Assembly: GCA_018524725.1 (NCBI GenBank)
Contig: JAEUWP010000400.1
Span: 120,420-184,419, forward strand
Direction of reading: 5' to 3'
Length of the DNA: 64,000 nucleotides
Source: Podaxis mareebaensis
Taxonomy: Eukaryota > Basidiomycota > Agaricomycetes > Agaricales > Agaricaceae
Positions within the stretch are counted from its first letter, which is position 1, and every line of letters starts with the position of its first letter. The notes under the pieces are model-generated. The model made no database searches and was not told where the DNA came from. It saw only the letters and a list, made by a program, of their open reading frames with translations. Positions 47,591 to 61,719 of this stretch are shown here, piece by piece. The position numbers and the translations under genes were made by a program.

Positions 47591-49935
47591 TTACACCATG
47601 ACCACTTGCATACGTCCAGATAGCCTAGCCTGCACAACAGGTCCCATAATCTTCTTCAACTCCAGCTCTCCAATTCGAACCGCGAAAAGCCTCATTTGAT
47701 ATCGAGCGCGAAACCAGTTTTCTGCTGCATCGTCTTGCATTATCGTTACAGACGCGGCAATGGCGGTGGTAGCCTGCCCCGACTCTGGCCGGTCCACAAA
47801 CAGTAAGCCATCACATTCGTATTCGTCTACAGTGTCGTCGTATGTCATCATGGGTACAGCTGTCACCTTCAGGAACAGCCCATTCTTCCGGTCGCAAACG
47901 GCCCATTCCGGCACATCCCTCTTCACGACGGTGTTGTCGAAGCAGACGGCATAATAAACAGACGCAAGACCGCTGGGAGTACATCTCCCCGATGCAATTT
48001 CTCCCGGATATCCGACAGCCAACGACGTATCGGTCTTGGTCATGAGCGTCCTAGGCGCCCAACGGAAGTTGTCCAATCGCAATTTTGGAGATGCGATGAA
48101 CGGGGTGTTTCCAGGCACCGCGCCCACTAAAATGAGCAGTTTCTTCATCCGTTCCTCTCGTTGCAAGTCGACGAGCTCGGACGCATCAACGTGCAGCAAC
48201 CCGCAAATGGCCAACGTCTCGTCCTCCGCCTTGCTCGTTGATCTCCATTTCAGCGCACGCGCGACCTGCGCTATTCCAAACTCTTTGGGGAACGACTGGT
48301 AAGAGCGTAGACGGTATACTTCAGTGGAGAGCTGCATGTAGAGCGGGTTGAATAGTCCCTCCCCTGTTGGGATGATATCATCCACACCAATGATGCCGTC
48401 GGAGAACTCGAAGCAAAGCTTTGCTGCGAGCATGGCTTCCTGGAGCGTCCACAAACGCTGCATCCATCCCGACGTAATGACTCGCAGGAGCTTCTCCTCC
48501 AAAGGAGCATGGATAGAGCATGTACGTATGCCGGAATCAATGACAAGGACCATATCTGCACGACGATATGTCTCCGCCATAAGTTGTATCGCTCGCTTCC
48601 TCATGTCACGACGCGCTGGGACACAGAGGGAGTCGATCCAGAAGTGCCCATTTGGTGCAACTTGAGATACGAGTCTTGCTAAACGGAGGATCTGGCAGGA
48701 TGGTAGTCCGACCTCAGTCGTACTTCCAAGTCCATCAGACCAGACGTGCGAGATCGCAACGTAAGGTGTAGTGGAGAAGGAGGTGGGGATGACTGCTGGG
48801 ATGGCGCGGTCGTCGCCGCTGTCATGGTGTACCCGGACGACAGGGACTTGTCCGCTCTCTAGCAACCCTACCACTCTGCCTAACGGCGGCGTAACGTAGG
48901 TGCATCTTTCGCAACGCGCACCGGGGGCATGTCTGTTCTGATAGGTATTGGTATCAACATTGTTGACCACGCAACTCTGACTGGTGCAGGCATCGTGAAC
49001 GTATTGTACGTCTCCACGGGCTGGCGGACGGGTGCTTGCGTACTGGAACGCGCAAGAACCACTAATCAGACGAACAACGAGTGGACACCAGCCATTGCTA
49101 ACGATCTTCTGCTGTTGTTTGCTAGTTACGTCGCGAAGGAACGACCAGTCGACACCTGAACCTTTCGGGCGAACCTCGTCAGGGAACGCCACCCAGGAAC
49201 TACGTATTGCTTCTGCGATACACGCGATAGTGCTTAAAATGTGGAAGATGCTGTCCCTGGGGATGCTACACCGGAGAAGGGGAGAGAATGAGGGATGGAA
49301 GATCTCGAGCTGGAGGATGCCGTGAGCAACTTTGATTGTCTCCGCGACACGTTTGGCCCATTCTTGGCTGGCATTGCCTTTCCCCAGAGCACGAATACGG
49401 TTACGCCAGGTCTGAAGGAGTGACGGTAGATGTGAGTCTACCATCATAGATTTATCAGCGTTGAGAAGTATGCTCTCTGGCACCTTCACCTCCATAACAC
49501 CTTCGAGGAACCCGAATGTGAAGAGAGCCTGGAATTGGGCTGCATATGCTTCGGGCTGGGTCCTGTTGAGCCGCCTCGTATACTCTCGAAATGAGATGAG
49601 GGGCAGCTCGTCGTGTTTTGCTCCCAACCAGACCGTGGGCTTGAAGGTGAAAGTGGGTGGTGGTGCAAGGATAGCTAGCAGGCTCTGCTTGTATTTTGGG
49701 GTGTAAGCGCTGGTCTTCGATTCAAGGGTTGCCTCCAAGGCGCAATGCTCGAGTGGTTCCTTCGATGGCTCTGCAATGGGGGAGCACTTTCGAAGACTGC
49801 CCAAGCTACTAACCATTTAAACTCACCCTCTGGCGCCGACTGACTCTGGGCAACTGGACCGTTGTAGTTGTGCACTACACTACCATTGGTGTAATGAGAG
49901 CTTTCGGAGCGTAATTGAGGACCGTTAGAGAACAT
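47591..49935 (-). CDS. HET-domain protein
   Basis: Heterokaryon-incompatibility-type protein. The three hallmark blocks are present: YVAISHVWSDGLG, HFWIDSLCVPARRDMRKRAI followed by YRRADMVLVIDS, and GWMQRLWTLQEAMLA. They are preceded by a Cys-rich stretch (HDACTSQSCVV, RCERCTY). The uninterrupted frame begins at 49816 (MVSSLGSLRKC). A better model splices a 56-nt intron (49771-49826, GTGAGT...TTGCAG), joining MFSNGPQLRSESSHYTNGSV (ATG at 49935) to EPSKEPLEH in frame, about 762 aa. In filamentous ascomycetes HET proteins trigger cell death on non-self fusion. In basidiomycetes the function is unproved. The retrotransposon LTR ends only 113 bp upstream of this start. Confidence 0.85.
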
Positions 49936-50048: not shown

Positions 50049-50311
50049 TGTAAGCCTACTGAGGCTTACTTAGAGCGTTGACCTTAAGTTCACACCAACG
50101 TACAATAAGCCCGATGTATTGGGAAGTACGTAGTGTAGGTATAAGGTCAGCTGTCGTGACGACAGCTGACAACGAGAATATAAAGGACATTTTCCTGATG
50201 GATTAAGTAATCCATCAGGGTTAAGTGACAGCGGGAATTAAACAATTAATTAATACAATATTGATTACCAAGAAAGGAGACGACCACGATAGTAAGGGCT
50301 TAACCCTTACA
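50049..50311 (-). repeat. 3' LTR of the retrotransposon
   Basis: Pairs with 61457-61719. The last 160 bp is nearly identical to its partner and the first 100 bp is clearly diverged. It contains hairpins GTAAGCC/GGCTTAC (50050-50069), ACGTAC/GTACGT (50098-50131), GTCAGCTGTCGT/ACGACAGCTGAC (about 50146-50170), CTGATGGATTA/TAATCCATCAG (about 50196-50219) and GTAAGGG/CCCTTAC (50292-50310). Confidence 0.95.
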
Positions 50312-50430
50312 CACCCCCCGTTGAGACCGTAAGGTACGGTCAAGAATTTCATGACACAAGTAACGAGGTTACTTGTGGTGACGAGTGGGAGACGGGGACA
50401 CAGATAGCGCCCAGTCAGTAGTAAGGTTTA

Positions 50431-53400
50431 GACGAGGTGATGGGTCACCTCGTAGGGGAAGCAGGGCTGGAGTCAACTCGATCACGAAGGTGACGAGGAC
50501 GAGCGTGAGCGTGAAGAGGCGATCGACGAGGATTCGCCGACGGGGTCCTGAGATGAGGAGGCGGAGGCGTTGGCCTCAACCAAAACAGCGATGGGTGGGA
50601 GATCGGACGCGAGGGCAGAGGCGTTGGTCTCGGTCATGGTCGCGTCAGATGAGTGGGATTCGGCGGCGGCGAGTGTGGATACAGAGGCGTTGGCCTCTAT
50701 CATTTGTGCGTCCGTATCGAGAGCCGCTTCATCAGGGACAGCGGGTGCCACCTCACCGAGAGTTAGCGCGAGGGGGTGGGTCAGCCGCAGTTGGGATAGG
50801 GGTGGCTCCAGCAGACGCTGAGGGTAGTCGCGGTTCTGTAGGAGCCGGAAGTAAGGCGAGGCCCCTGCTGGTAACCATCCTCGGGGAACAAAGTGTTCCC
50901 CCTTTTCCTGTCGAGTGTTCTTGTACTCAAAGTACAAGAATCGATTGAGGTCATCGTCAGTGGGATGTCTCCATCCATCCCACTCTGGAATTGCCGGTGG
51001 TTCATGATACCGGTCGAGGTATTCCACTCGGCGATTGTCGTGTTCGTCGTATAAATCGTGGTGTAGTTGGTCACCACGATAGGTGTGGTTGAGCCACCAC
51101 AACCCGAAGAGATATGCATGGTCTACCCATGACGTGGGTATACCGTTACGGATGAGGACATGAGCCACGTCGTTGAGGCTCAAATTGTGTGCAGCATAGG
51201 AGGTTATGTCCAGGGACCGTATCGAAAATACGGGCCCGTTTTGCGAGGAGTAGGCGCGTTCTGGGGGAACGCGACTGTTATATCCGGCGATGAATTCCCG
51301 GTATAAGTTTGGGGTCGCGACGAGGATAGCGAATAACCTCATGAACTTCTGCGACGCGCTCTTGTCGGATGGGCTCAGTGCTCGGCCCAAGCCGTAACCG
51401 AAGACGCAACGGCGATGGACAAGTCGTCGCCGTTCGAATGCAATGCCATTGTAGGCATTGCGAGTGTTGGGGTTTCCGTGGATAAGGAGATATTGACCTA
51501 GGAGGTCAATATCGAAGAGCTGAGGGCCGGTCGGCATCGGGAGGCCTTTGCCCTCATTCCATTTGAGAACGTTTCTGGCGCCGTGATCTTGCACGGCACG
51601 CGGGATGGGTTCGAGCCTAGTCATGTATTCCTTTTGCATTCCAGGCGCCAGGAAGTTGGGGTCGTACCCCTCGAGGTTTAAGATGAATTCCATAGCATCA
51701 TCGTGATGCTCTGGCAAGGTTGCGGTTGCGATGCTGTGCAGTTCTCGGAGTAGGAAGTACGCCTCGAACCTGCTGTGGATGTTGATATGGCGGTTATTCA
51801 TGAGCCGCCATAGTCGTAGGACTTGTCTCGGGGTCGTTGGCAGACCCCGACCTGCGATGTTGTGAACTGTGCCTTTCTTGTTGCTGTGCACGAACTCCCT
51901 GCCTTGGAGTTCGGCGTTGGCGGCAAGTCGGGCATTTGTGCCTGCGAATACTGTGTTTATTCGCCAGCAATAATACACGTCGTGCGACAACATTCCTCGC
52001 ATGGAGTTGTCGCGTTCTCTGATACCGGGCTCGGTACCCCAAAGTCCCCAGAGGTCAGGAATCCTGCCTCCTCGTCCGATGAGGTCGGAGACGCCGGCGC
52101 AATCGTCGTCTCCGGACGATTGTGCTTTTTGGTTTTTCTTGTTTTTCTTACGACGATTCCTTGATGAATCGTCGTCTTCGTCGCTTGAGTACTCCAGTCC
52201 CGAAAGCCGTTCCTCCGGGTCGTCTGGACTGTATCGGACGAACTCGTGGTGGAGGCGGATTACGGGTTCTGGTAGGAGATTTCCTGGTGGGCGTACCAGG
52301 ATAGGTTGGCCAAAGGAGAGTCCCTCAAAGAGGGACTCTGATGGTACAATACCACTCGAGGTTGGTTTCATTGACCTCGAGGTTGTGCTTGTCGAGGGTT
52401 CGTGCATGGGGACATCGATGTCCCCAGATGGTACTTCCTCGATATAGGGTAGGGTGATGTCAGCCGGAGGTGGTGGTGGCCGACGCAATGACGATGCAGC
52501 TGGTGGTGGTGAGGGTTGGCAGCGTTGGCAAGGTAAAGGTTTTACCTCGTTGCCCGTACATGGTGTTGGGGTGGTGGTGTCTTGTGGGGTGCTCGGCACC
52601 CCCCATTGAGACAACGTCGTCGATTGAGATGTCGCACGCCGTTTTGCAGGCCGTTCTTCTTCTTGGTCCAACTTCTCATTCAACTGTCGTTGCAGGTTCG
52701 AGACCTGCCTCTGCAATAGGCTGTTTCATCCTTCAAGCATGATGAAACGGTCTTGTAAACTGCAGAGCTTTGTTAAAAGCTCCTCGATGATGGCATTGCA
52801 GCCAGTGTGCTTTGAGCTGGTGCTCAGCTCAGATATCAGGTCTATGGGTAGACCTGCCTCGTTGAGTCGGTTCATCAGCTCTTGGACATATTGATTGTCC
52901 TCGAGCTCTACATCTACAGCCCTTTGCTTTCCTCGAGCTTTTGAGGAAAGCACAGCTGGTGCTAGTTTGGATGGGTTCTGTTTACCCTTGTCCTTGGAGG
53001 ACAAGGGTAGCGTGGGTTTTTGCGCCTTGCTCCTTCCTTTGGCTGAGGTGGCTGAGGGGGGTTGGGATGGAGGAACATCGTTCCTCCGTGCATCAGTTGT
53101 CGATGATGTTGTTGGGGCCAGTGTCATTGGTCGCATTGTTGTAGCTGGCCGATCTTGGGTTGGCGACTGTGATTGTTGTGGTATGGGCACCGTCTGTTGG
53201 AATGGTGTGAATGGTTGTTGGATGAGTGGCACTGGGGTGGATTGCTGGTATGGTGGGTATGGCGCCAGTGGTGGAGGGTAGTGTCCGTACGGTTGTGGAA
53301 AACCGTACATGTGTGGGGAGGGAGGAGGGTAGAACGCAGGGTACAGGAAACCCTGCATGAACTGTGGAGGTGGCAGAGGCATCGCATGTAAATGCGATGG

Positions 53401-53763
53401 GTCCAGTTGGTTTGGGCCTTGTGGTATTGAGCCCACAAGGTTAGATAGTAATGCTTGCTGGGCAGCGAGTTGCTGCCCATTGTGGTGAGGAGCTGGGATC
53501 GGGTCGGGCGATATATCCATTGCCCTCCCCCCTTCGAGGCCCATTGGAGGGGCTCCAGGTTGTGCAGGGTGATTCACTTCACCCTGCACCGACGTGTGTT
53601 GTTGGTTTTGTGTGTTTTGCAGTTGTTGCGCGTCCATGGTGGTGGTGCTGAGGTGAAGACAGATTAAAGTTATTTGTCCCATCTCTGTGTTCCCAAACAT
53701 TGGGAACATGATCCTCAGGGTCGAGTGTCCAATTTTGGACACCATCAATTTTTCCATGGATAG
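50431..53763 (-). other. Retrotransposon: long 3' domain of unknown function
   Basis: About 1,110 codons after the chromodomain, in the position of env or accessory genes of other elements. The first third is proline-rich (YPPPSPHMYGFPQPYGHYPP) with a predicted coiled coil around ELMNRLNEAGLPIDLISEL and LLQRQVSNLQRQLNEKLDQE, interrupted by TGA 52726. An acidic stretch follows. A folded-looking region of about 450 aa has VLRLWRLMNNRHINIHSRFE, DDAMEFILNLEGYDPNFL, LFDIDLLGQYLLIHGNPNTR, NLSLNDVAHVLIRNGIPTSW and WRHPTDDDLNRFLYFEYKN. A Ser/Ala-rich tail repeats EANAS. There are no TM segments, so it is not an envelope protein. I do not recognise the fold. Confidence 0.75.
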
Positions 53764-53766
53764 TCA

Positions 53767-55674
53767 TTGACTGATCCGTGGTAGTTGTTGGATTGACTTA
53801 GCACCTTTCAGCTCTAGATACCAATCTAGAGCTGCTAGGTCTTTACAATGGCTATACGGCTCCCAGGTCGTATCGCCTAGACTCCAGCGGACTTGGAGCT
53901 CCGCCTTGCCATCGTTTGTGAAACGATGACTGATGATTTCGTCAACGAACCATTCATGTTCGTTGTCTATGCCAAAGTCATAGGGTTCCAGTTTATTTCG
54001 GCTTGGAAATAGTGCATCATCCAATGCATTATAGGGCCGAAGCAATGATATGTGGAACGTCGGGTGTATTCAATGTTCCTGCAGGGCTGGTGGTAGCTCG
54101 AGACGGTAGTTAGACATCTCAGGTTTGGCCTCCAGGACCTTAAAGGGTCCAATGAACTTTGGGCAGAGCTTTCGAGCTCTGCCTTTCGGCAAGTTCAGGT
54201 TTTTGGTGGAGAGGAATACCAGATCCCTGACTTTAATGTCGGGTTCAGGTCCTCTCTTTTTGTTCACCTGGTGGGTTTGGAAAACCCGCGCTTCTATGAT
54301 GGTGTCATGAGCGGACGCCAAGTTTATCAGGGTGGCTTCAGCAAATAGTCTAACACCCTTAGGGGGTGTTAGGTCACCCCGTATTTCTCGGATCATACTG
54401 GGCATGTATCCACTGTTCAATTCAAACGGTGCATACCCAGTAGTGGCCGATATACTCGAGTTTATAGCAAACTTGGTCATGGGTACCTTGTCTACCCAGT
54501 TTTTCTGGTCATGGCTGACCGTTGCTCGGAATATCTGTCCGATATTCCAATTCATGTGTTCGGTCTGTCCATCTGTTTGTGGGTGGAATGATGTGGACAT
54601 TAGGAGCTTGGCTCCTAAAATTTTATGGAGTTCTACCCACCAAACGGAGGTGAACTTTGAATCTCGATCGCTTACGATCGAGCTAGGGAGGCCATGTAGC
54701 CTCACGATCTCTCGTAGGTAGATCCAAGATAATTCGGATGCTTTCATCTGCATATGTACTGGAATTAGGTGTACCATACTCGTCATTCTACAAATGACGA
54801 CCCAAAGGTAATCGAAACCCTTGGATTCAGGGAATGGACCGACGAAGTCCATTCCGATGGAGTCCCAAGGTTTGATTGGGACCAGTAGCAAGTGTAATTC
54901 TCCGGAAGGTTTCATATTCAGGACCTTTGAACATTGACATATCTTGCAGGTTCTACAGAACATGCATGCGTCTTTGGCTAATTTTGGCCACCAGTACCAC
55001 CTTCGGAGGTACTCTGCTGTCTGTTGGTCGCCGAAGTGGCCAATGATCTCGTGAGCTTTATTCAGAAGCTCTGTGATTAAGGATCGATTGTTGGGAACAC
55101 ATACTACCTCCCGTCCTTGGGGGGTAGTTCTTCGAATAATACTGTCATCATTGACGGTGAAACCACTGTATTTCTCAGGTGCTTCAAGCACTGCTGAGAA
55201 TACGGGGTCGGATGCGTATCCTGATGTGATTGTTTTCATCACATTGACTGGGAGCTCCATTGGAGCTTCAGTGGTGATGTTACCCATTAACGTGTCTCCC
55301 AGTGTTGGAGACTCAACAATTCGTTCTTGTGGCTCCTGTTGAGCCACCTGTCTCTGGGCTGTTTCTTGAAGCTCATGAGCTTCAATTTCTTGTTCTTCCT
55401 GTCATTCGTGCAGGCGGGTGCTTCGCCGCAATGGTCGCTCAACCATTGCCTTGACTCTGTTGAGGAGATGCTCAATCTCCTCGGCTCGTTGTAGAGGTAG
55501 GTCCTCGCAGTGAGGATCGATTCTGTGGTCGACTTGGATGTATTCTCCAGGGGAGTGTTCCTCTCCTGGAGTATCGCTTTCAAAGTAGCGAGATAAGCAG
55601 TCTGCTACTTTATTTCGTTCTCCTTTGACATATGTAATGTCAAAGTTAAAGTGCAATAGATAGTCCATCCATCG
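53767..55674 (-). other. Retrotransposon: integrase and chromodomain
   Basis: The segment begins with the RNase H tail (YVKGERNKVADCLSRY). Integrase shows the H2C2 finger (HEIIGHFGDQQTAEYL...CRTCKICQ) and a DDE core: GMDFVGPFPESKGFDYLWVV, IVSDRDSKF and HPQTDGQTEHMNWNIGQ. The GPF/Y-like end is KFIGPFKVLEAKPEMSNYRL. After the TGA at 54070 (expected Arg) IHPTFHISLLRPY leads to a chromodomain, EWFVDEIISHRF...LQVRWSLGDTTWEPYSHC, with the aromatic/W-E-P core that in chromoviruses directs insertion to heterochromatin marks. Confidence 0.9.
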
Positions 55675-55677
55675 TCA

Positions 55678-57588
55678 TTGTCAGCTAGACAATTGCATTT
55701 GAGTTTTGAAAAACTCCAGTGCCTTGTGATCTGTGATAACATGGATCCGGTAGCCGATGAGTTTGTCCTCCCACTTCATTAGCGCTTCTAAAATCGCTAG
55801 TGTCTCGAGTTCATGCATGGCATAGTTCTGCTGTGTGGGGGTGAACTTCTTGGACATGAATCCTGCTGGGCGGCAGTCTGCCCAGGTGGGTCCTTGTCTG
55901 TACATAGCTCCAACGCCTGTCTTAGAGGCGTCACAGATGATCCATATGGGTTCCCCAGTTCTGGGGTCTATCGGTTTGACAATAGGGGTCTTCTCACAGA
56001 TCCTCTTCACCATGTCAAAGCAGCGCTGGTGAAGGGGTCTCCAATGGAACGGGGTTCTGTTCTGGGTGATTGCGAGCAGTGGCCCGGTGTATGCAGATAC
56101 ATCTGGCAAAAAGTTTGCCAAGTAGTTGACGAGTCCAATGAATCGTTGGATGTCGGTATAGTTTCTGGGAGTGCGCCATCCCCGAATACAAGTCAGTTTG
56201 TCTTTGTCTGGGTGTATCCCTTGGTCATCGATAATATGACCAAGGCAGTCTACGCGATCTGTGTACAGATCGCATTTGGATTGTTTGACATATAACTTGT
56301 GTTTGCACAGTCGCTCGAACACAAGTTGTAGATGATCTTTGTGTTCATCTATTGAGTCAGAAAATATGAAGATGTCGTCAAGGTATATGTGTACACATAT
56401 ACCTATGACATCACGAAATATAGCAGTCATTAACCGCTGAAAGGTTGCAGGGGCATTACAATCCCCCTGCTGCATTATGTTGCTGACATACGTGCCAGCG
56501 ATTGTAGTGAATCCCGTTTTGTCTACGTCTTCCAGACGTACTCAGACTTGCTTGTAGGCATCAGCGAGATCGATCTTGGATCGATATCGTGCTCGAGCAA
56601 CGTCTTCTCGAATGACATCTTGGTCTGGCAAGGGCATAGCGTCCTTGACGGTGTTTTCGTTTTGTTGTCATGCATCGATGACAGTTCGTAATCGACTGTC
56701 TTTCTTTGGGATGCACAATAATGGTGCTGCTTGGGATATATGTCGTGGCTCCCACCATCTTGCGTTCACATAGCGGTTGAGTTTCTGGTGAAACTCCCCA
56801 TGCAGGGATTGTGGGCATCTGGGAGTGAAGTAGCTATACTTCTTACTCTCGTCAATGAGGTTTATTTCGTGGTTTACTTCATGAAATGGGGGAAGCTTGT
56901 CTGGAGGACCATGCATTATGTCCTCGAATTCATTGAACCATTGCTGGCGCAGCGTCAGTATGTCCTTCTTGGAGTACCAGCCTTGTCGCTCAGGGTGGCG
57001 GTTCCTCTTCTCAGCGTTGATCCGAGTGTTTTGTATCCATGTTTCTGAATCATCTTCCACTGGAAGACGAGTGACGATCATACTGCGGAGTTGATCTCGT
57101 ACCATTTTATCAGGGTAATGTACCCTGGTAAACTCCTGGGTTTCGACTACGTCGTCGAGGTTGGGTTGTGTGAACCCAGTCGAGGTTGGTAGTTCGTCCC
57201 CAGGACGACACATTTCCCATATGCCGCAGACCATGGCATTCCATTCTGCGGGCATGCAGGGGTCGTAGTACCACTTGAACATTGGGTTCTGAGTGGGTCT
57301 GTCCATCAAACGAGACTTGTATCTTGTTTTTTGTGGTCTATGAGGGGCATTTTGTCCCTCTTGGTTTGGTAAAGGGTGTGATTTTTCCTTCAGTTTGTCT
57401 CTCTTGGAGGAGACCTTGTGTCCTCTGTGACCCACGTCCCCCCTTCGAGAGTTCATGGAACTCTCGACCTCTTCTAGGAGGTGACAGCTATCGTGGGGTA
57501 ATGTTTCCCCTCGGGAACTTTGTTCGTCATCTCGAACTTCTTCTATGGATGTTTGACGAATATTATCTCGTCGAACATCCTCCACAAG
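55678..57588 (-). other. Retrotransposon: reverse transcriptase and RNase H
   Basis: RT motifs in order are APLLCIPKKDSRLRTVIDA (TGA follows in place of Arg), YRSKIDLADAYKQV (TGA), MQQGDCNAPATFQRLMTAIF, the catalytic IYLDDIFIFS, YVKQSKCDLYTDRVDCLGH and FIGLVNYLANFLPDVSAY. RNase H has IWIICDASKTGVGAMYRQG, NYAMHELETLAILEAL and HVITDHKALEFFKTQ. Four TGA codons fall within or at the edge of these domains, so this copy cannot make a full RT without readthrough. Confidence 0.92.
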
Positions 57589-57591
57589 TCA

Positions 57592-58395
57592 ACTTGACTT
57601 GTTTTTGTTGGTTGCACGGTGGCGACGCAGGCGAGTATCTGATTCGCTGGTGAAGTTCACCACTGCTATGGTTTTGTTTCCGATTCTGACTTCATTCTTG
57701 ATGAAGTCGAGGATAACATTGTTCGTACGCATGAATGGCGTACCGATTATCATGTTGTAGCAATCGAAGTTTGCTACATCTACATACATACGAGTACGTA
57801 TGTTTCCAATGGTGACATTTACTGTCGCTCCATACTTGACAGTGGATCGACTGCCCACTGTCCCCAGTTGCAGTGTGTGGGGGTCTAATAGTTTGTTGAC
57901 CCTGACGCCAGCCACTTGTGCAAATGTGGGGGTGATGCCAGTAGTCGTACTGCCGGAGTCCCACAGTGTCCAAGCGTCAATGCCGTTGACGCTGATGAGA
58001 GTGGCAAGGCATTGTTTCTTGCTGAGGGAGGCTTGGGGCCGAAGGATCTTATCCTTCTCTTTATGGAGGGTAACGCGGCATACCCTCACTTCGTGGTCTG
58101 GTTTCTCACTGGGCTCGACAGTGAGAGCGTCAACAACATTGAAGTTGTCGCAATCTTTGTCACTGACATCTTCTGCATCGCCAATCATGGCGGCGAAATT
58201 GTATTCATCGTCAACGTCAGATCCGTAGTCTGATTCGATGACTTCGACTTGTACTAGTTCATCTCCGTTTGACGAACTAGGCTCTGGTTCTTCTTGGACC
58301 TCAGTGTTGTCATCTGAGGTCAAGTCCTGTTCAATTTCTTCAACTTCTTGTTGAAGAACTTCTTCGTCGTTTGCTGGAACGACTGTATGTGCAGC
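57592..58395 (-). other. Retrotransposon: aspartic protease
   Basis: Retropepsin-like segment. After an acidic linker, INGIDAWTLWDSGSTTTGIT contains DSG (catalytic D-S/T-G). A later hydrophobic block, CYNMIIGTPFMRTNNVILDF, matches the second conserved I-I-G-x-x-F element. The distance between the two blocks is normal for Ty3-type proteases. Confidence 0.85.
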
Positions 58396-58398
58396 TCA

Positions 58399-59382
58399 TA
58401 CATAGCTGTGTCGTTTCCCCTTTTCTGGGCATTCTTGTGCCCAGTGACCATGTTTTCCACATTCGTAACAAGGCCCTTTCTCTGTGGCCTTGTTCCCTTG
58501 GTTCTGCTTAACAGGTACCTTGCTCTGTACCTGTGGTTTGAATTGAGCCTTGGGTTTGTATTGTCGAGGTGGGGGTTTCAACGGTCGCTTTGGTGGAAAG
58601 GCGTTCGAGGATCGCCTTAGCTCATGGGCAGGGATGTGATCTCGTCCTGTGGATATGCGACGAGGGACCCATGCGGTCCTTGTTCTTGGTTCTGCTGCAG
58701 CAGGTTTCTTTGAGAAGCCTGCTGATGGTTTGTGTGATTGAGAAGGTTTCAGTACCCTTTTGAAGAAAGCACTGCTTTGCATCCGATTCTTGTAATCGGC
58801 TGCATGTGCCACAAAATCCTCAAGTTGATTCATCTCAGGAGATAGTCCTCTGTCGAACATGAGGAAGTGCCTCATGGTTTGTGGGAGACCTTCCAGGAAG
58901 GTCTCAATGAGAGAATAATCATCAGGGTGGATCGCCATGTCTTGCGAGTAACCCAAGATGGCGTCGTAATAGTGTTGAATCCCTTCTTTGGGATTGTATC
59001 TGACCCCTTTGAGGCTTTCGTGAGCCTCGTGCATTGATGTTGGTCTGATGAATCTGTCATAGAGCACCGTAATGATGCTCTTGAATGTCCAATCATATTT
59101 ACTACGATCTATACTAAGTACATGATGAACAAACATATCCTTTGCCTCTCCAACAAGGTAATATTGGAGGGTTAGGATTTGTAGTTGATCCATAGCGGGA
59201 CTTTGTCCCCCTAGTCCTTTCATGGCGAAGTCAGCACAGAGACTTGTTACAAATGACAACAAGTCTCTGAATCAGTGACTTCCACTGTATGGTTCTAAGC
59301 TCTTTTCTGTGGGGAGCTTGTTTAGCGAAGGTTTATAACCTTCAGGATACTTGATGGGTTGCGCAAGGTATTGGTCAATCGT
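58399..59382 (-). other. Retrotransposon: gag core with zinc knuckle
   Basis: Retrotransposon-gag-type core with LEPYSGSH, then YYLVGEAKDMFVHHVL, FKSIITVLYDRFI, VRYNPKEGIQHYYDAILGY and LIETFLEGLPQTMRHFLMFD. After a Lys/Pro/Arg-rich linker comes one CCHC knuckle, CYECGKHGHWAQEC (CX2CX4HX4C), that binds the element's RNA. TGA at 59272 lies near its start and TGA 58396 follows it. Confidence 0.88.
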
Positions 59383-59385
59383 TCA

Positions 59386-61350
59386 GTGTAAACAATCATA
59401 CATTAGGTTATTGTAACTCTGGATGGATTGTACGATCCCCAGAGTTACTGACTCATCACATGCCTCTCTGACTAGAGAGTATTGACGAGTCCCTCAGTTC
59501 GGTGTGGGGAGTTGTGAGGTGGTGTATACCTCCCACTCCTCCTTGGTATCATCTTCTTCCTCTCCTTCTTCCTCTTGGACGGGAGGGAGATTTCGGAGGG
59601 GATGTAGATTGTATAGCAGGGGCAGAATTTGCCCCTGTGAGGATGGTTGTTGGGGTGGGGATGCCATCCTGACCATTTTGCGGGTATTAACCGTTTGGGG
59701 TGTCTTGAGAGGGCCTCCAAAGAATACACGAGTAGCTGCCTTTTGCTCCTCATGTTCCGACATGGTGGCCTCAATGGGTATGTGTCTGTTGAACCTAACA
59801 TATTGGTCGTCTATCAGGGACGACCCATGGGTGCGAATGTCTTCGTTTCGCATTCATTGTAGGGCGACCCGGTCACTCCACTTATCAGCACGAGGGGTTT
59901 GTTTAGCCATAGGCAATATGAACGGGGTGCTCGAGGCTTGGAACGAACCAGCGTTCATGGGAATGCTAGTGGCGGAAGGTAGCTCGGCTTTAACATTTGA
60001 TGTTGAAGCCACTGGGGATTTTCCACCAGTCATGGTTTTGGCTGGTGGCAATCTCATGGTCTCAGGACTTGTTGCAGGGTAGTTACTACCCTGCACTGTT
60101 GTTCTTGGTGATGGTACACCCATTGGTCCTTTCCCTTTGGGAGAAGGGATAGGGGGCAGTCGAGGCGACCAATGTGGGTTGAGGGTGTTGATCTGACCCT
60201 GGGGGTCAGGTTGCATTAACAGGGGAGGCAGCGGTTGGGATTGTGATGCCCCAGTGGTTGGGGCATAGCGATGCAATTGGTTCGCGAAGGTATTGTTCCC
60301 TGGGACTGTCTCACCATCCGTGATGGTGGACCCATCGATGGTGAAGTGTGTGGCCCTTAGGCCATACCCTTGTGCATGTCATCATTGTGTGCTGAGGCGC
60401 TCGTTGTAAGCTTGATCCATTTCCCCTGGTTGCCTGGGCGCATGTAAATGCGCCACAGCTTGGGTGGTATTTGATAACACAGTCAGTGAGGGAGATGGAT
60501 GGCATGGATGTAAGTGAGGGGCTGCGATGCGGAGTTGTGGTTGAGGCGTTGCCGGCGGTCCATCATTATTGTGTTGACGATGGTGCTTGTGTACTGGATG
60601 TTGTTCGGCCCTCTTGATCGCTTCATCAATTTTGGCATTGAGGGGATCATAGGTGATCCCATCATTAGTGGAGTCGAGGATGTGCTCGAGGTACTGTTGA
60701 GTGGGTTGTATTTTATATACACTATGCATGGGCATAAGGTCAGTTTGTTTGACCTTTGTGGCCCGGGCCTTTTGGTAGGCCATGCAGAGCTTTGTCAAAG
60801 CTCTGATATAGGTGGTGTGGAATCGGTTGGAGCTGACTTCTATTGGCGAGTCAGTTTCCCGGTATGACTCTGCTACAATTGTTTCAGCGTATATCAGCAT
60901 TTGGTGTTGGCGTTGGCGTTTAATAACGCCATAGTCTGTGAATACGGAGTTGACTTGGTCTTCTAAGGAGACCACATCGTTGAGAGCAGGGGGTGAGAAT
61001 TCCAGCGTCGATGGTTCAGAGTGTGAACCATCGGATCAGTGTGTTGTGTTGGGCGACACGGGTCGTGCTGCGAGGGGATGTCTCGCTTCAAGTTCAGGGA
61101 AAAGAGGAAGCTCCAGAGGAGCTTCCTCACTGGTAGTGGACAAGTCGTGAGTCGACGCATCTGTTGGAGGGATGGTGATGGGGATTGGTGACGTCGGGTC
61201 GTTGTGAGGTGAGGGGATAGATGGGGGATGGGGTGTAGATGGAGTGTGTGCATCTTGTGTGCTTGCGTCGCACGTCGTCGCGTCAAATTGCTGTTGCGTG
61301 TCTTCGGACACGTCGTAGTGCCCAGGGGGGTGGTTGTACTGTGAGGTCAT
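59386..61350 (-). other. Retrotransposon: N-terminal region upstream of the gag core
   Basis: About 650 codons before the gag core. A Thr/Ser/Pro-rich start is followed by a helical, charged segment (residues about 130-240: KRQRQHQMLIYAETIVAESY, HTTYIRALTKLCMAYQKAR) and a long proline-rich region. The end is acidic (EEEGEEEDDTKEEW). No domain is recognisable. It may be an unusually long gag N terminus. Six TGA codons lie inside: 61036, 60382, 60379, 59854, 59494, with 59383 at its lower edge. Confidence 0.6.
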
Positions 61351-61456
61351 TTGTGTGAGTGGTGACGAGAGGTTTTTGCTTTAGGCTTTTAAGCGCAATA
61401 ATTGCATTTAATGGATTCACTTAGTACGTGCCCAAGTGTGGGGTACAGTAAAAAAG

Positions 61457-61719
61457 TGTAAACCTGTTGGGTTTACTTAGAGCGTATGACCTTACGTTCA
61501 CACTGAAGTACTGTAAGCCCAATGTATTGGGTGTACTTATGGTATGGTATAAGGTCAGCTGTCGTGACAACAGCTGACAACGAGAATATAAAGGACATTT
61601 TCCTGATGGATTAAGTAATCCATCAGGGTTAAGTAATAGCGGGAATTAAACAATTAATTAATACAATATTGATTACCAAGAAAGGAGACAACCACGATAG
61701 TAAGGGCTTAACCCTTACA
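61457..61719 (-). repeat. 5' LTR of the retrotransposon
   Basis: Partner of 50049-50311. The equivalent hairpins here are GTAAACC/GGTTTAC (61458-61476) and AAGTAC/GTACTT (61506-61538), both altered in sequence but still fully paired. It ends in CTTACA followed by GTACATC. Confidence 0.95.

What the first reader, a model, noticed from the sequence alone, without database searches (positions are those of the whole stretch)
50292..61033. An entire 11.7-kb retrotransposon is saturated with short perfect palindromes
Seen directly: perfect inverted repeats with 7-12 bp arms and loops mostly of 0-10 nt occur about every 50-100 bp through LTRs, gag, pol and the 3' domain, each with a different sequence. 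Examples (whole hairpin, arm length): 50356-50376 (9), 50918-50940 (10), 51489-51513 (10), 52317-52339 (10), 52983-53009 (11), 53562-53589 (11), 53809-53834 (11), 55366-55385 (10), 56219-56245 (10), 56381-56404 (12), 57446-57466 (9), 58885-58905 (10), 59237-59269 (12), 61009-61033 (10). By chance an 8-bp arm with a loop of 3-10 nt should appear about once or twice in this length; I list dozens. Neighbouring host genes and the second retroelement do not show the pattern. The palindromes sit inside conserved domains, so coding sequence tolerates or accommodates them. Possible causes are selected genome-wide RNA structure, protein or small-RNA targeting, or a mutational process such as hairpin-templated copying during reverse transcription. 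I know of no described Ty3 family with this property.
Basis: partly seen in the sequence, partly recalled or inferred. Interest (0 to 1): 0.92.

Follow-up and report, generated by a model that had tools for sequence, protein, structure and literature searches.

The report
Retrotransposon saturated with selected coding palindromes
A family of fungal jumping genes carries about a hundred short, perfect, all-different DNA palindromes per copy, right through its protein-coding sequence, and comparison of copies indicates that natural selection keeps the palindrome arms pairing, for a purpose still unknown.

Summary
The 11,671-bp Ty3/gypsy element at 50049-61719 (minus strand) holds 108 perfect inverted repeats (arm >=7, loop <=10) against 6.3 in dinucleotide shuffles; its long frame holds 98 against 6.9 in synonymous-codon permutations. 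The 50-kb flank is at background. The 15 related copies fetched and 5 copies of a 62-68% identical subfamily are rich in them too; six other Ty3 elements of the genome are not. Judged in copies other than the one used to find the hairpins, arms differ about two-fold less than the rest at non-CpG third codon positions, from 6-bp arms upward. Pair-breaking changes are depleted 2-7 fold; pair-preserving double changes lie within the control range. CpG decay is equal in and outside arms, so arms are not mutational cold spots. Neutral arm-to-arm copying is therefore not the main cause, though four possible loop inversions hint that hairpins form during copying. G.U pairs are not clearly favoured on either strand, unlike ordinary sense-RNA structure. 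Likeliest: hairpins selected in single-stranded replication intermediates. Eight searches of open papers found no such element.

The parts
50049..61719 (-). whole Ty3/gypsy element, 11,671 bp, saturated with short perfect palindromes
61457..61719 (-). 5' LTR (263 bp), 4 palindromes
50049..50311 (-). 3' LTR (263 bp), 4 palindromes; 242 of 265 gapped columns identical to the 5' LTR
57589..61350 (-). gag-protease frame (gag, CCHC zinc knuckle, aspartyl protease), ending at an in-frame TGA found in all aligned close copies; start position approximate
   Evidence: Pfam; frame; stop
53764..57588 (-). pol frame (RT, RNase H, integrase, weak chromodomain match at the end), same frame as gag-pro
50482..53763 (-). 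3' ORF of about 1,090 codons, same frame, no Pfam or PDB sequence match; related in the subfamily (34-40%)
50194..50219 (.). LTR palindrome, 12-bp arms, 2-nt loop
50918..50940 (.). palindrome, 10-bp arms, 3-nt loop; arms unchanged in 13 of 14 aligned copies
51489..51513 (.). palindrome, 11-bp arms, 3-nt loop; among other copies five have loop AAA and one its reverse complement
52317..52339 (.). palindrome, 10-bp arms; loop reverse-complemented in one copy
52983..53009 (.). palindrome, 12-bp arms, 3-nt loop; among other copies nine share a loop and one has its reverse complement
54162..54183 (.). palindrome shared with the subfamily, one base pair exchanged on both sides in 5 of 5 subfamily copies
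56381..56404 (.). palindrome, 12-bp arms, no loop, inside the RT coding region
57584..57602 (.). palindrome, 9-bp arms, over the conserved gag-pro/pol stop codon; unchanged in 15 of 15 other copies
57756..57778 (.). palindrome fully paired in 3 of 5 subfamily copies with three or four base pairs exchanged on both sides (7/8 and 6/8 paired in the other two)
61104..61128 (.). palindrome, 11-bp arms, 3-nt loop; the window's loop is the reverse complement of that in seven other copies

Best explanation
A clade of Ty3/gypsy retrotransposons in this fungus keeps, by purifying selection, about a hundred short perfect stem-loops of all-different sequence spread through LTRs and coding sequence. SHOWN: what is conserved is pairing between the two arms; most single stems come and go over longer times while high density is kept. 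SUGGESTED: freedom at third codon positions is used to accommodate them (phase order). INFERRED: because a G.U pair on one strand is an A.C mismatch on the other and neither is clearly preferred, the hairpins seem to be needed on both strands, or as DNA. The likeliest setting is the single-stranded stage of the cycle (genomic RNA and minus-strand cDNA in the particle), where a chain of independent local hairpins would compact and order the molecule and keep it from annealing to complementary strands, sister copies or silencing RNAs. The constraint itself I hold at about 0.85; the single-stranded-intermediate role at about 0.4.
For: Enrichment over dinucleotide, synonymous and codon-order shuffles. 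High density in the 15 close copies fetched (6.2-10.3 per kb in 27 of 30 pieces; 3.4-4.5 in three pieces of two interrupted copies) and in 5 subfamily copies (7.1-9.5 per kb in 3' pieces, 3.8-6.9 in 5' pieces, some with flank). Six other Ty3 elements of the genome have 1, 0, 1, 0, 4 and 1 repeats in 3.5-4 kb. Hairpins found in the window, divergence measured among eight copies of the other clade: non-CpG third positions arm 0.064, loop 0.178, rest 0.152; five further set-ups agree (rest/arm 1.8-2.6). Subfamily, non-CpG, all codon positions: arm 0.015 and 0.020 against 0.044 and 0.041. Dependence on stem: 4-5 bp arms 0.18-0.20, 6 bp and longer 0.04-0.12 (not strictly monotonic), background 0.23; loops 3-5 nt 0.079, 9-14 nt 0.138; first base outside the stem at baseline (0.1215 vs 0.1227). 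Codon-matched control pairs, window not compared, between clades: single changes 0.088 vs 0.231, pair-breaking doubles 0.0025 vs 0.018, pair-preserving doubles 0.0050 vs 0.0077 (control range 0.0024-0.0154); within one clade 0.062 vs 0.131, 0.0020 vs 0.0067, 0.0015 vs 0.0036. CpG columns diverge alike in and outside arms, 0.409 vs 0.430. Folding energy per 120 nt: sense -32.5 vs -24.3 (sd 0.29 over 12 permutations), antisense -39.0 vs -32.0. Codon phases 48, 34, 27 of 109.
Against: The strand test is a null result with limited power (pooled antisense-G.U to sense-G.U tolerance about 1.15, my arithmetic). The close family leans to antisense (one-mismatch stems outside CpG context: 91 sense A.C against 20 sense G.T, but the same sites recur across related copies), the subfamily does not (13 against 12). 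Transversions are more depleted than either kind of transition (33 distinct against about 125 expected), so wobble-type mismatches may be partly tolerated. Many changes in copies are decay after insertion, which dilutes any G.U signal. Compensatory changes are not in excess of control, only spared; against L024 there is no excess (6 vs 7.8), against L044 a modest one (23 vs 12.4). In the RT-protease part shared positions with the subfamily are 0-1. No functional readout. Selection strong enough to hold so many separate stems in a transposon is hard to explain.
Confidence: 0.5

Rival explanations
1. Genome-scale ordered RNA structure of the usual kind: only the sense genomic RNA must be folded (packaging, stability, evasion of RNA silencing).
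For: Strong folding excess on the sense strand, constraint at third codon positions, turnover of individual stems.
Against: Changes that turn a sense-strand pair into G.U are depleted at least as much as those that make A.C (distinct events on the + strand: TC 16 and GA 36 against about 46 and 88 expected; CT 45 and AG 41 against about 81 and 87; counts, expectations my arithmetic; subfamily leans the other way). Stems are short, mostly perfect, without bulges.
Confidence: 0.25
2. Arm-to-arm conversion by template switching during reverse transcription or replication makes and keeps the palindromes without function, as proposed for hairworm mitochondrial genes.
For: Mostly perfect arms; four 3-nt loops reverse-complemented in single copies, against one 3-nt case in a reversed-order control; same codon-phase order as in hairworm palindromes.
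Against: Conversion turns single changes into paired ones: about half of the single changes missing from arms (roughly 0.07 between clades) should reappear as pair-preserving doubles; 0.005 is seen, not above control. Third-position sites paired with third-position sites should diverge neutrally; they show about 0.08 per site against 0.27 between clades in the 3' half, and about 0.08 against 0.185 in the 5' half. Arm differences are less lopsided than the random mean in 15 of 15 non-independent comparisons.
Confidence: 0.15
3. The palindromes act in chromosomal double-stranded DNA as cruciforms, for instance on chromatin, recombination or integration of further copies.
For: No clear strand preference of the constraint; copies are mosaics of different clades; a slight palindrome preference of plant LTR element insertion is published (passages).
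Against: Arms of 7-12 bp are short for cruciform extrusion (recalled, not tested); the published insertion preference is very small; a benefit to the individual copy is hard to see.
Confidence: 0.08
4. Chance, assembly artefact or composition effect.
For: None found.
Against: Shuffles, the same stems on independent contigs, cross-clade constraint.
Confidence: 0.01

Closest known systems
Coding palindromes of hairworm (Nematomorpha) mitochondrial genes (PMC6649704; abstract, discussion and passages read)
   Same: Many perfect inverted repeats inside conserved coding sequence, shared midpoints between relatives, gains and losses, few imperfect repeats, phase 1 favoured and phase 3 disfavoured
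   Different: There mitochondrial, arms up to 284 bp, explained tentatively by repeat conversion; here a nuclear LTR retrotransposon, arms mostly 7-12 bp, and the substitution pattern fits selection on pairing rather than conversion
Genome-scale ordered RNA structure (GORS) of positive-strand RNA viruses (titles and starts of abstracts; further features recalled)
   Same: Structure through the coding genome
   Different: Here isolated short perfect hairpins, no clear G.U tolerance on either strand, in a retrotransposon that also exists as DNA
Yeast Ty3 genomic RNA structure (PMC11381356; abstract and one section read)
   Same: Ty3/gypsy LTR retrotransposon; short palindromes proposed for dimerisation at the 5' end
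   Different: Yeast Ty3 is described as a mosaic with up to 30% stable, highly structured regions; no saturation with perfect palindromes is described in the parts read
Template-switch mutations that create hairpins and invert loops (PMC8794818, passages read; PMC8604942, PMC3820800, starts of abstracts)
   Same: Loop inversion and perfect stems
   Different: Could explain the four loop inversions but not the reduced divergence of the arms

Membership tests
Ty3/gypsy LTR retrotransposon | two LTRs with TG...CA ends | tested here: met
   263-bp LTRs, TGTAAG...TTACA
Ty3/gypsy LTR retrotransposon | gag, protease, RT, RNase H, integrase in this order | tested here: met
   Pfam matches in order along the minus strand; the gag match itself is below its cut-off
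Ty3/gypsy LTR retrotransposon | target site duplication | tested here: not met
   flanking 5-mers differ; the LTRs also differ at one end, so this copy may be recombinant
Chromovirus (chromodomain Ty3) | chromodomain after the integrase | tested here: inconclusive
   Pfam Chromo at the right place, E 8e-4, 19.7 bits, below the 25.1-bit cut-off
GORS | folding energy well below codon-matched controls along the genome | tested here: met
   89 of 91 sense and 78 of 91 antisense windows below the permuted mean, 12 permutations
GORS | structure at the RNA level, G.U pairs tolerated on the RNA strand | tested here: inconclusive
   no excess of sense G.U; power limited
Coding palindromes kept by arm conversion (Nematomorpha type) | perfect arms, few imperfect ones | tested here: met
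   perfect stems outnumber one-mismatch stems, which are still above background
Coding palindromes kept by arm conversion (Nematomorpha type) | codon phase 1 > 2 > 3 | tested here: met
   48, 34, 27 of 109; statistically weak
Coding palindromes kept by arm conversion (Nematomorpha type) | excess of paired changes as conversion predicts | tested here: not met

The most novel reading that the evidence does not exclude
A retroelement lineage has evolved a genome-wide architecture of about a hundred Watson-Crick hairpins that must form on both strands (RNA and cDNA, or DNA), overlaid on its whole protein-coding sequence: a strand-symmetric, self-pairing genome held by selection, a form of genome organisation not described before as far as my searches reach.
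Probability: 0.45. Interest if true: 0.93.

Novelty: new variant of a known kind. Interest (0 to 1): 0.85.

Why it matters
If true, an LTR retrotransposon carries a second, genome-wide code of self-pairing on top of its proteins, strong enough to slow third-position evolution about two-fold or more. It offers a multi-copy natural experiment, with decayed copies as an internal neutral control, for an open question raised by hairworm mitochondria: are dense coding palindromes selected or merely copied? Here the substitution pattern answers 'selected'. It would also point to an unknown requirement in packaging, reverse transcription or silencing evasion of fungal retroelements.

Tried and rejected
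Odd loop lengths (77 odd, 45 even in the window) looked like a rule but were not seen in the subfamily: dropped. Apparent compensatory changes at CpG pairs can be double hits of CpG decay; CpG-prone columns were removed from the arm counts (first part); the subfamily comparisons (second part) keep them, and they count as unchanged for the close copies only. Arm conservation measured against the window itself is biased because the window's arms are perfect by choice; searches compare other copies (three of the six set-ups find the hairpins in another copy and then include the window among the compared) and agree. Regular spacing: gaps have mean 96, sd 81, so no period. Recoding of TGA: 3 of 19 in-frame TGAs are invariant, the others vary among copies mostly as CpG decay would produce, so no recoding is claimed. 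Relatives of the integrase in viral contigs: none. The 3' ORF has no Pfam or PDB sequence match. Structure prediction was not run: the rule on permitted inputs does not list loci from whole genomes, and a single sequence would give a poor model. Copia control: not obtained. My note says the loop-inversion controls were empty; one search shows three reversed-order hits (two of 2 nt, one of 3 nt), while the three complement hits are the same loops as the reverse-complement ones.
Full report
What is there. The element at 50049-61719 is a Ty3/gypsy retrotransposon on the minus strand: LTRs of 263 bp at 50049-50311 and 61457-61719, gag with a zinc knuckle, aspartyl protease, RT/RNase H, integrase, a weak chromodomain match (E 8e-4, below cut-off), and a 3' ORF of about 1,090 codons without database match. 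All lie in one frame, open from about 61383 to 50430 except for 19 TGA codons and no TAA or TAG. Sixteen of the 19 TGAs vary among copies, mostly as CpG decay would make them; three are invariant wherever aligned: 57591 (15 of 15), 53766 (14 of 14) and 50484 (13 of 13). They look like true ends of gag-pro, pol and the 3' ORF. The neighbouring HET-domain gene fits a fungus; I infer a basidiomycete with CpG methylation, but no call identified the host.

The palindromes. The counts of the finding hold and are extreme: 108 perfect inverted repeats against 6.3 expected, 98 in the frame against 6.9 with protein and codon usage kept. Excess loops run from 0 to about 14 nt, most at 3-7; excess arms are perfect and 5-12 bp long. 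One-mismatch stems exist above background but are fewer. LTRs are at least as dense as coding parts. The flank is at background.

A lineage trait. In its own genome (36.95 Mb, 429 contigs) the integrase has 22 near-full-length matches at 79-100% identity including the window, 15 at 63-68%, and 44 at 29-36% among the 100 listed, besides fragments (lower bounds). I fetched 15 of the 21 other close copies and 5 of the 15 in the subfamily, in two pieces each. Close pieces have 6.2-10.3 repeats per kb in 27 of 30 cases; three pieces of two interrupted copies have 3.4-4.5; subfamily pieces have 3.8-9.5, some including flank. Six elements of the 44 have 1, 0, 1, 0, 4 and 1 repeats in 3.5-4 kb; the one with 4 is slightly above background. 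The trait is that of one clade, not of the genome or of Ty3 at large.

Turnover. Between window and subfamily (integrase part, 62-67% amino-acid identity), 5 or 6 of 17-21 hairpins share the exact centre (0.06-0.11 expected); in the RT-protease part (52-58%) only 0 or 1 of 11-23 do (p 0.07 to 1). Some shared stems have pairs exchanged on both sides, e.g. 54162-54183 and 57756-57778. High density is kept while most stems are replaced.

Selection or copying. First, hairpins were found in one clade and divergence measured among copies of the other, so the choice of perfect arms does not bias it: at non-CpG third codon positions arms 0.064, loops 0.178, rest 0.152; five other set-ups gave arms 0.031-0.067, loops 0.062-0.138, rest 0.058-0.152. 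Second, arms are not mutational cold spots: CpG columns diverge alike (0.409 and 0.430). Third, codon-matched control pairs. Measured against the window: single changes 0.043 vs 0.129, pair-breaking doubles 0.0008 vs about 0.005, pair-preserving doubles 0.0041 vs 0.0048; distinct double events 13 preserving and 3 breaking, control 17 and 18. Without the window, 3' half: between clades 0.088 vs 0.231, 0.0025 vs 0.018, 0.0050 vs 0.0077 (control range 0.0024-0.0154); within a clade 0.062 vs 0.131, 0.0020 vs 0.0067, 0.0015 vs 0.0036 (range 0.0007-0.0077). Changes that break pairing are removed, those that keep it are near the control level: purifying selection on pairing. Arm-to-arm conversion would instead turn single changes into paired ones, predicting roughly 0.07 pair-preserving doubles between clades, over ten times what is seen, and neutral divergence where both partners are third positions; there I find about 0.08 per site against 0.273 outside arms in the 3' half, and about 0.08 against 0.185 in the 5' half. 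Differences are also less concentrated in one arm than the random mean in 15 of 15 non-independent comparisons. The effect begins at 6-bp arms (16 hairpins; 7-bp arms are less constrained than 6-bp ones), falls with loop length, and is gone at the first base outside (0.1215 against a baseline of 0.1227). Against me: compensatory changes are spared, not in excess; versus L024 there is no excess (6 vs 7.8), versus L044 a modest one (23 vs 12.4).

Signs of hairpin-dependent copying. At four of 459 loop sites a 3-nt loop is the reverse complement of the others' in one copy (AAA/TTT twice, TAG/CTA, TCT/AGA). Of 10 reverse-complement hits, the rest are nested in these or are TG/CA cases that CpG decay explains. 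A reversed-order control gives three hits, one of them 3 nt long; the complement control hits are the same loops. This is suggestive of strand switching in hairpins (mark described in passages of PMC8794818), not proof.

Which strand. Transitions in an arm make G.T on one strand and A.C on the other. With expectations from non-arm sites (my arithmetic), sense-G.U changes reach about 0.41 and antisense-G.U changes about 0.47 of the neutral level; transversions about 0.26 in the close family. The close family leans to antisense, also in its one-mismatch stems (91 against 20, recurrent sites), the subfamily leans to sense or is balanced. Sense G.U is not tolerated like a full pair; more is not settled. 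Both strands fold far better than codon-permuted controls.

Known relatives. Hairworm mitochondrial coding palindromes (PMC6649704: abstract, discussion and passages read) are the nearest phenomenon, down to the codon-phase order (48, 34, 27 of 109 here; chi-square p about 0.04 by hand). GORS viruses (titles and starts of abstracts) are the nearest functional idea. Yeast Ty3 RNA (abstract and one section read) is not described so. Eight searches of open-licence papers returned listings without such an element; subscription papers are mostly missing from that library.

Verdict. A real, selected, lineage-specific palindrome architecture of a retrotransposon; the role is unknown, single-stranded intermediates being the likeliest stage.

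Noticed in passing
57589-57602: An in-frame TGA between protease and RT is present in 15 of 15 close copies (TGA in 4 and TAA in 1 of 5 subfamily copies) and lies inside a 9-bp perfect hairpin unchanged in the 15; pol follows in the same frame, which suggests programmed stop readthrough.
   Followed up: partly
50434-61380: All 19 stops in the long frame are TGA; 16 vary among copies, mostly as CpG decay would make them, fitting methylation-driven decay of old copies.
   Followed up: partly
50482-53763: A large 3' ORF of unknown function accompanies both palindrome-rich groups (34-40% identity between them), without Pfam or PDB sequence match; whether the other Ty3 families lack it was not tested.
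   Followed up: partly
50049-50150 and 61457-61560: The LTRs agree closely over one part but differ at the U5 end, where each keeps its own hairpin with an exchanged base pair; no target site duplication was found, so the copy may be a recombinant.
   Followed up: partly
L009-L043: Copies are mosaics: the 3' and 5' halves of some copies (e.g. contigs C347, C287) belong to different clades, which points to recombination between copies.
   Followed up: no
50049-61719: The sense strand is rich in A and C (about 58%), which leaves little chance pairing apart from the hairpins.
   Followed up: no
47591-49816: A HET-domain (heterokaryon incompatibility) protein gene lies next to the element.
   Followed up: no
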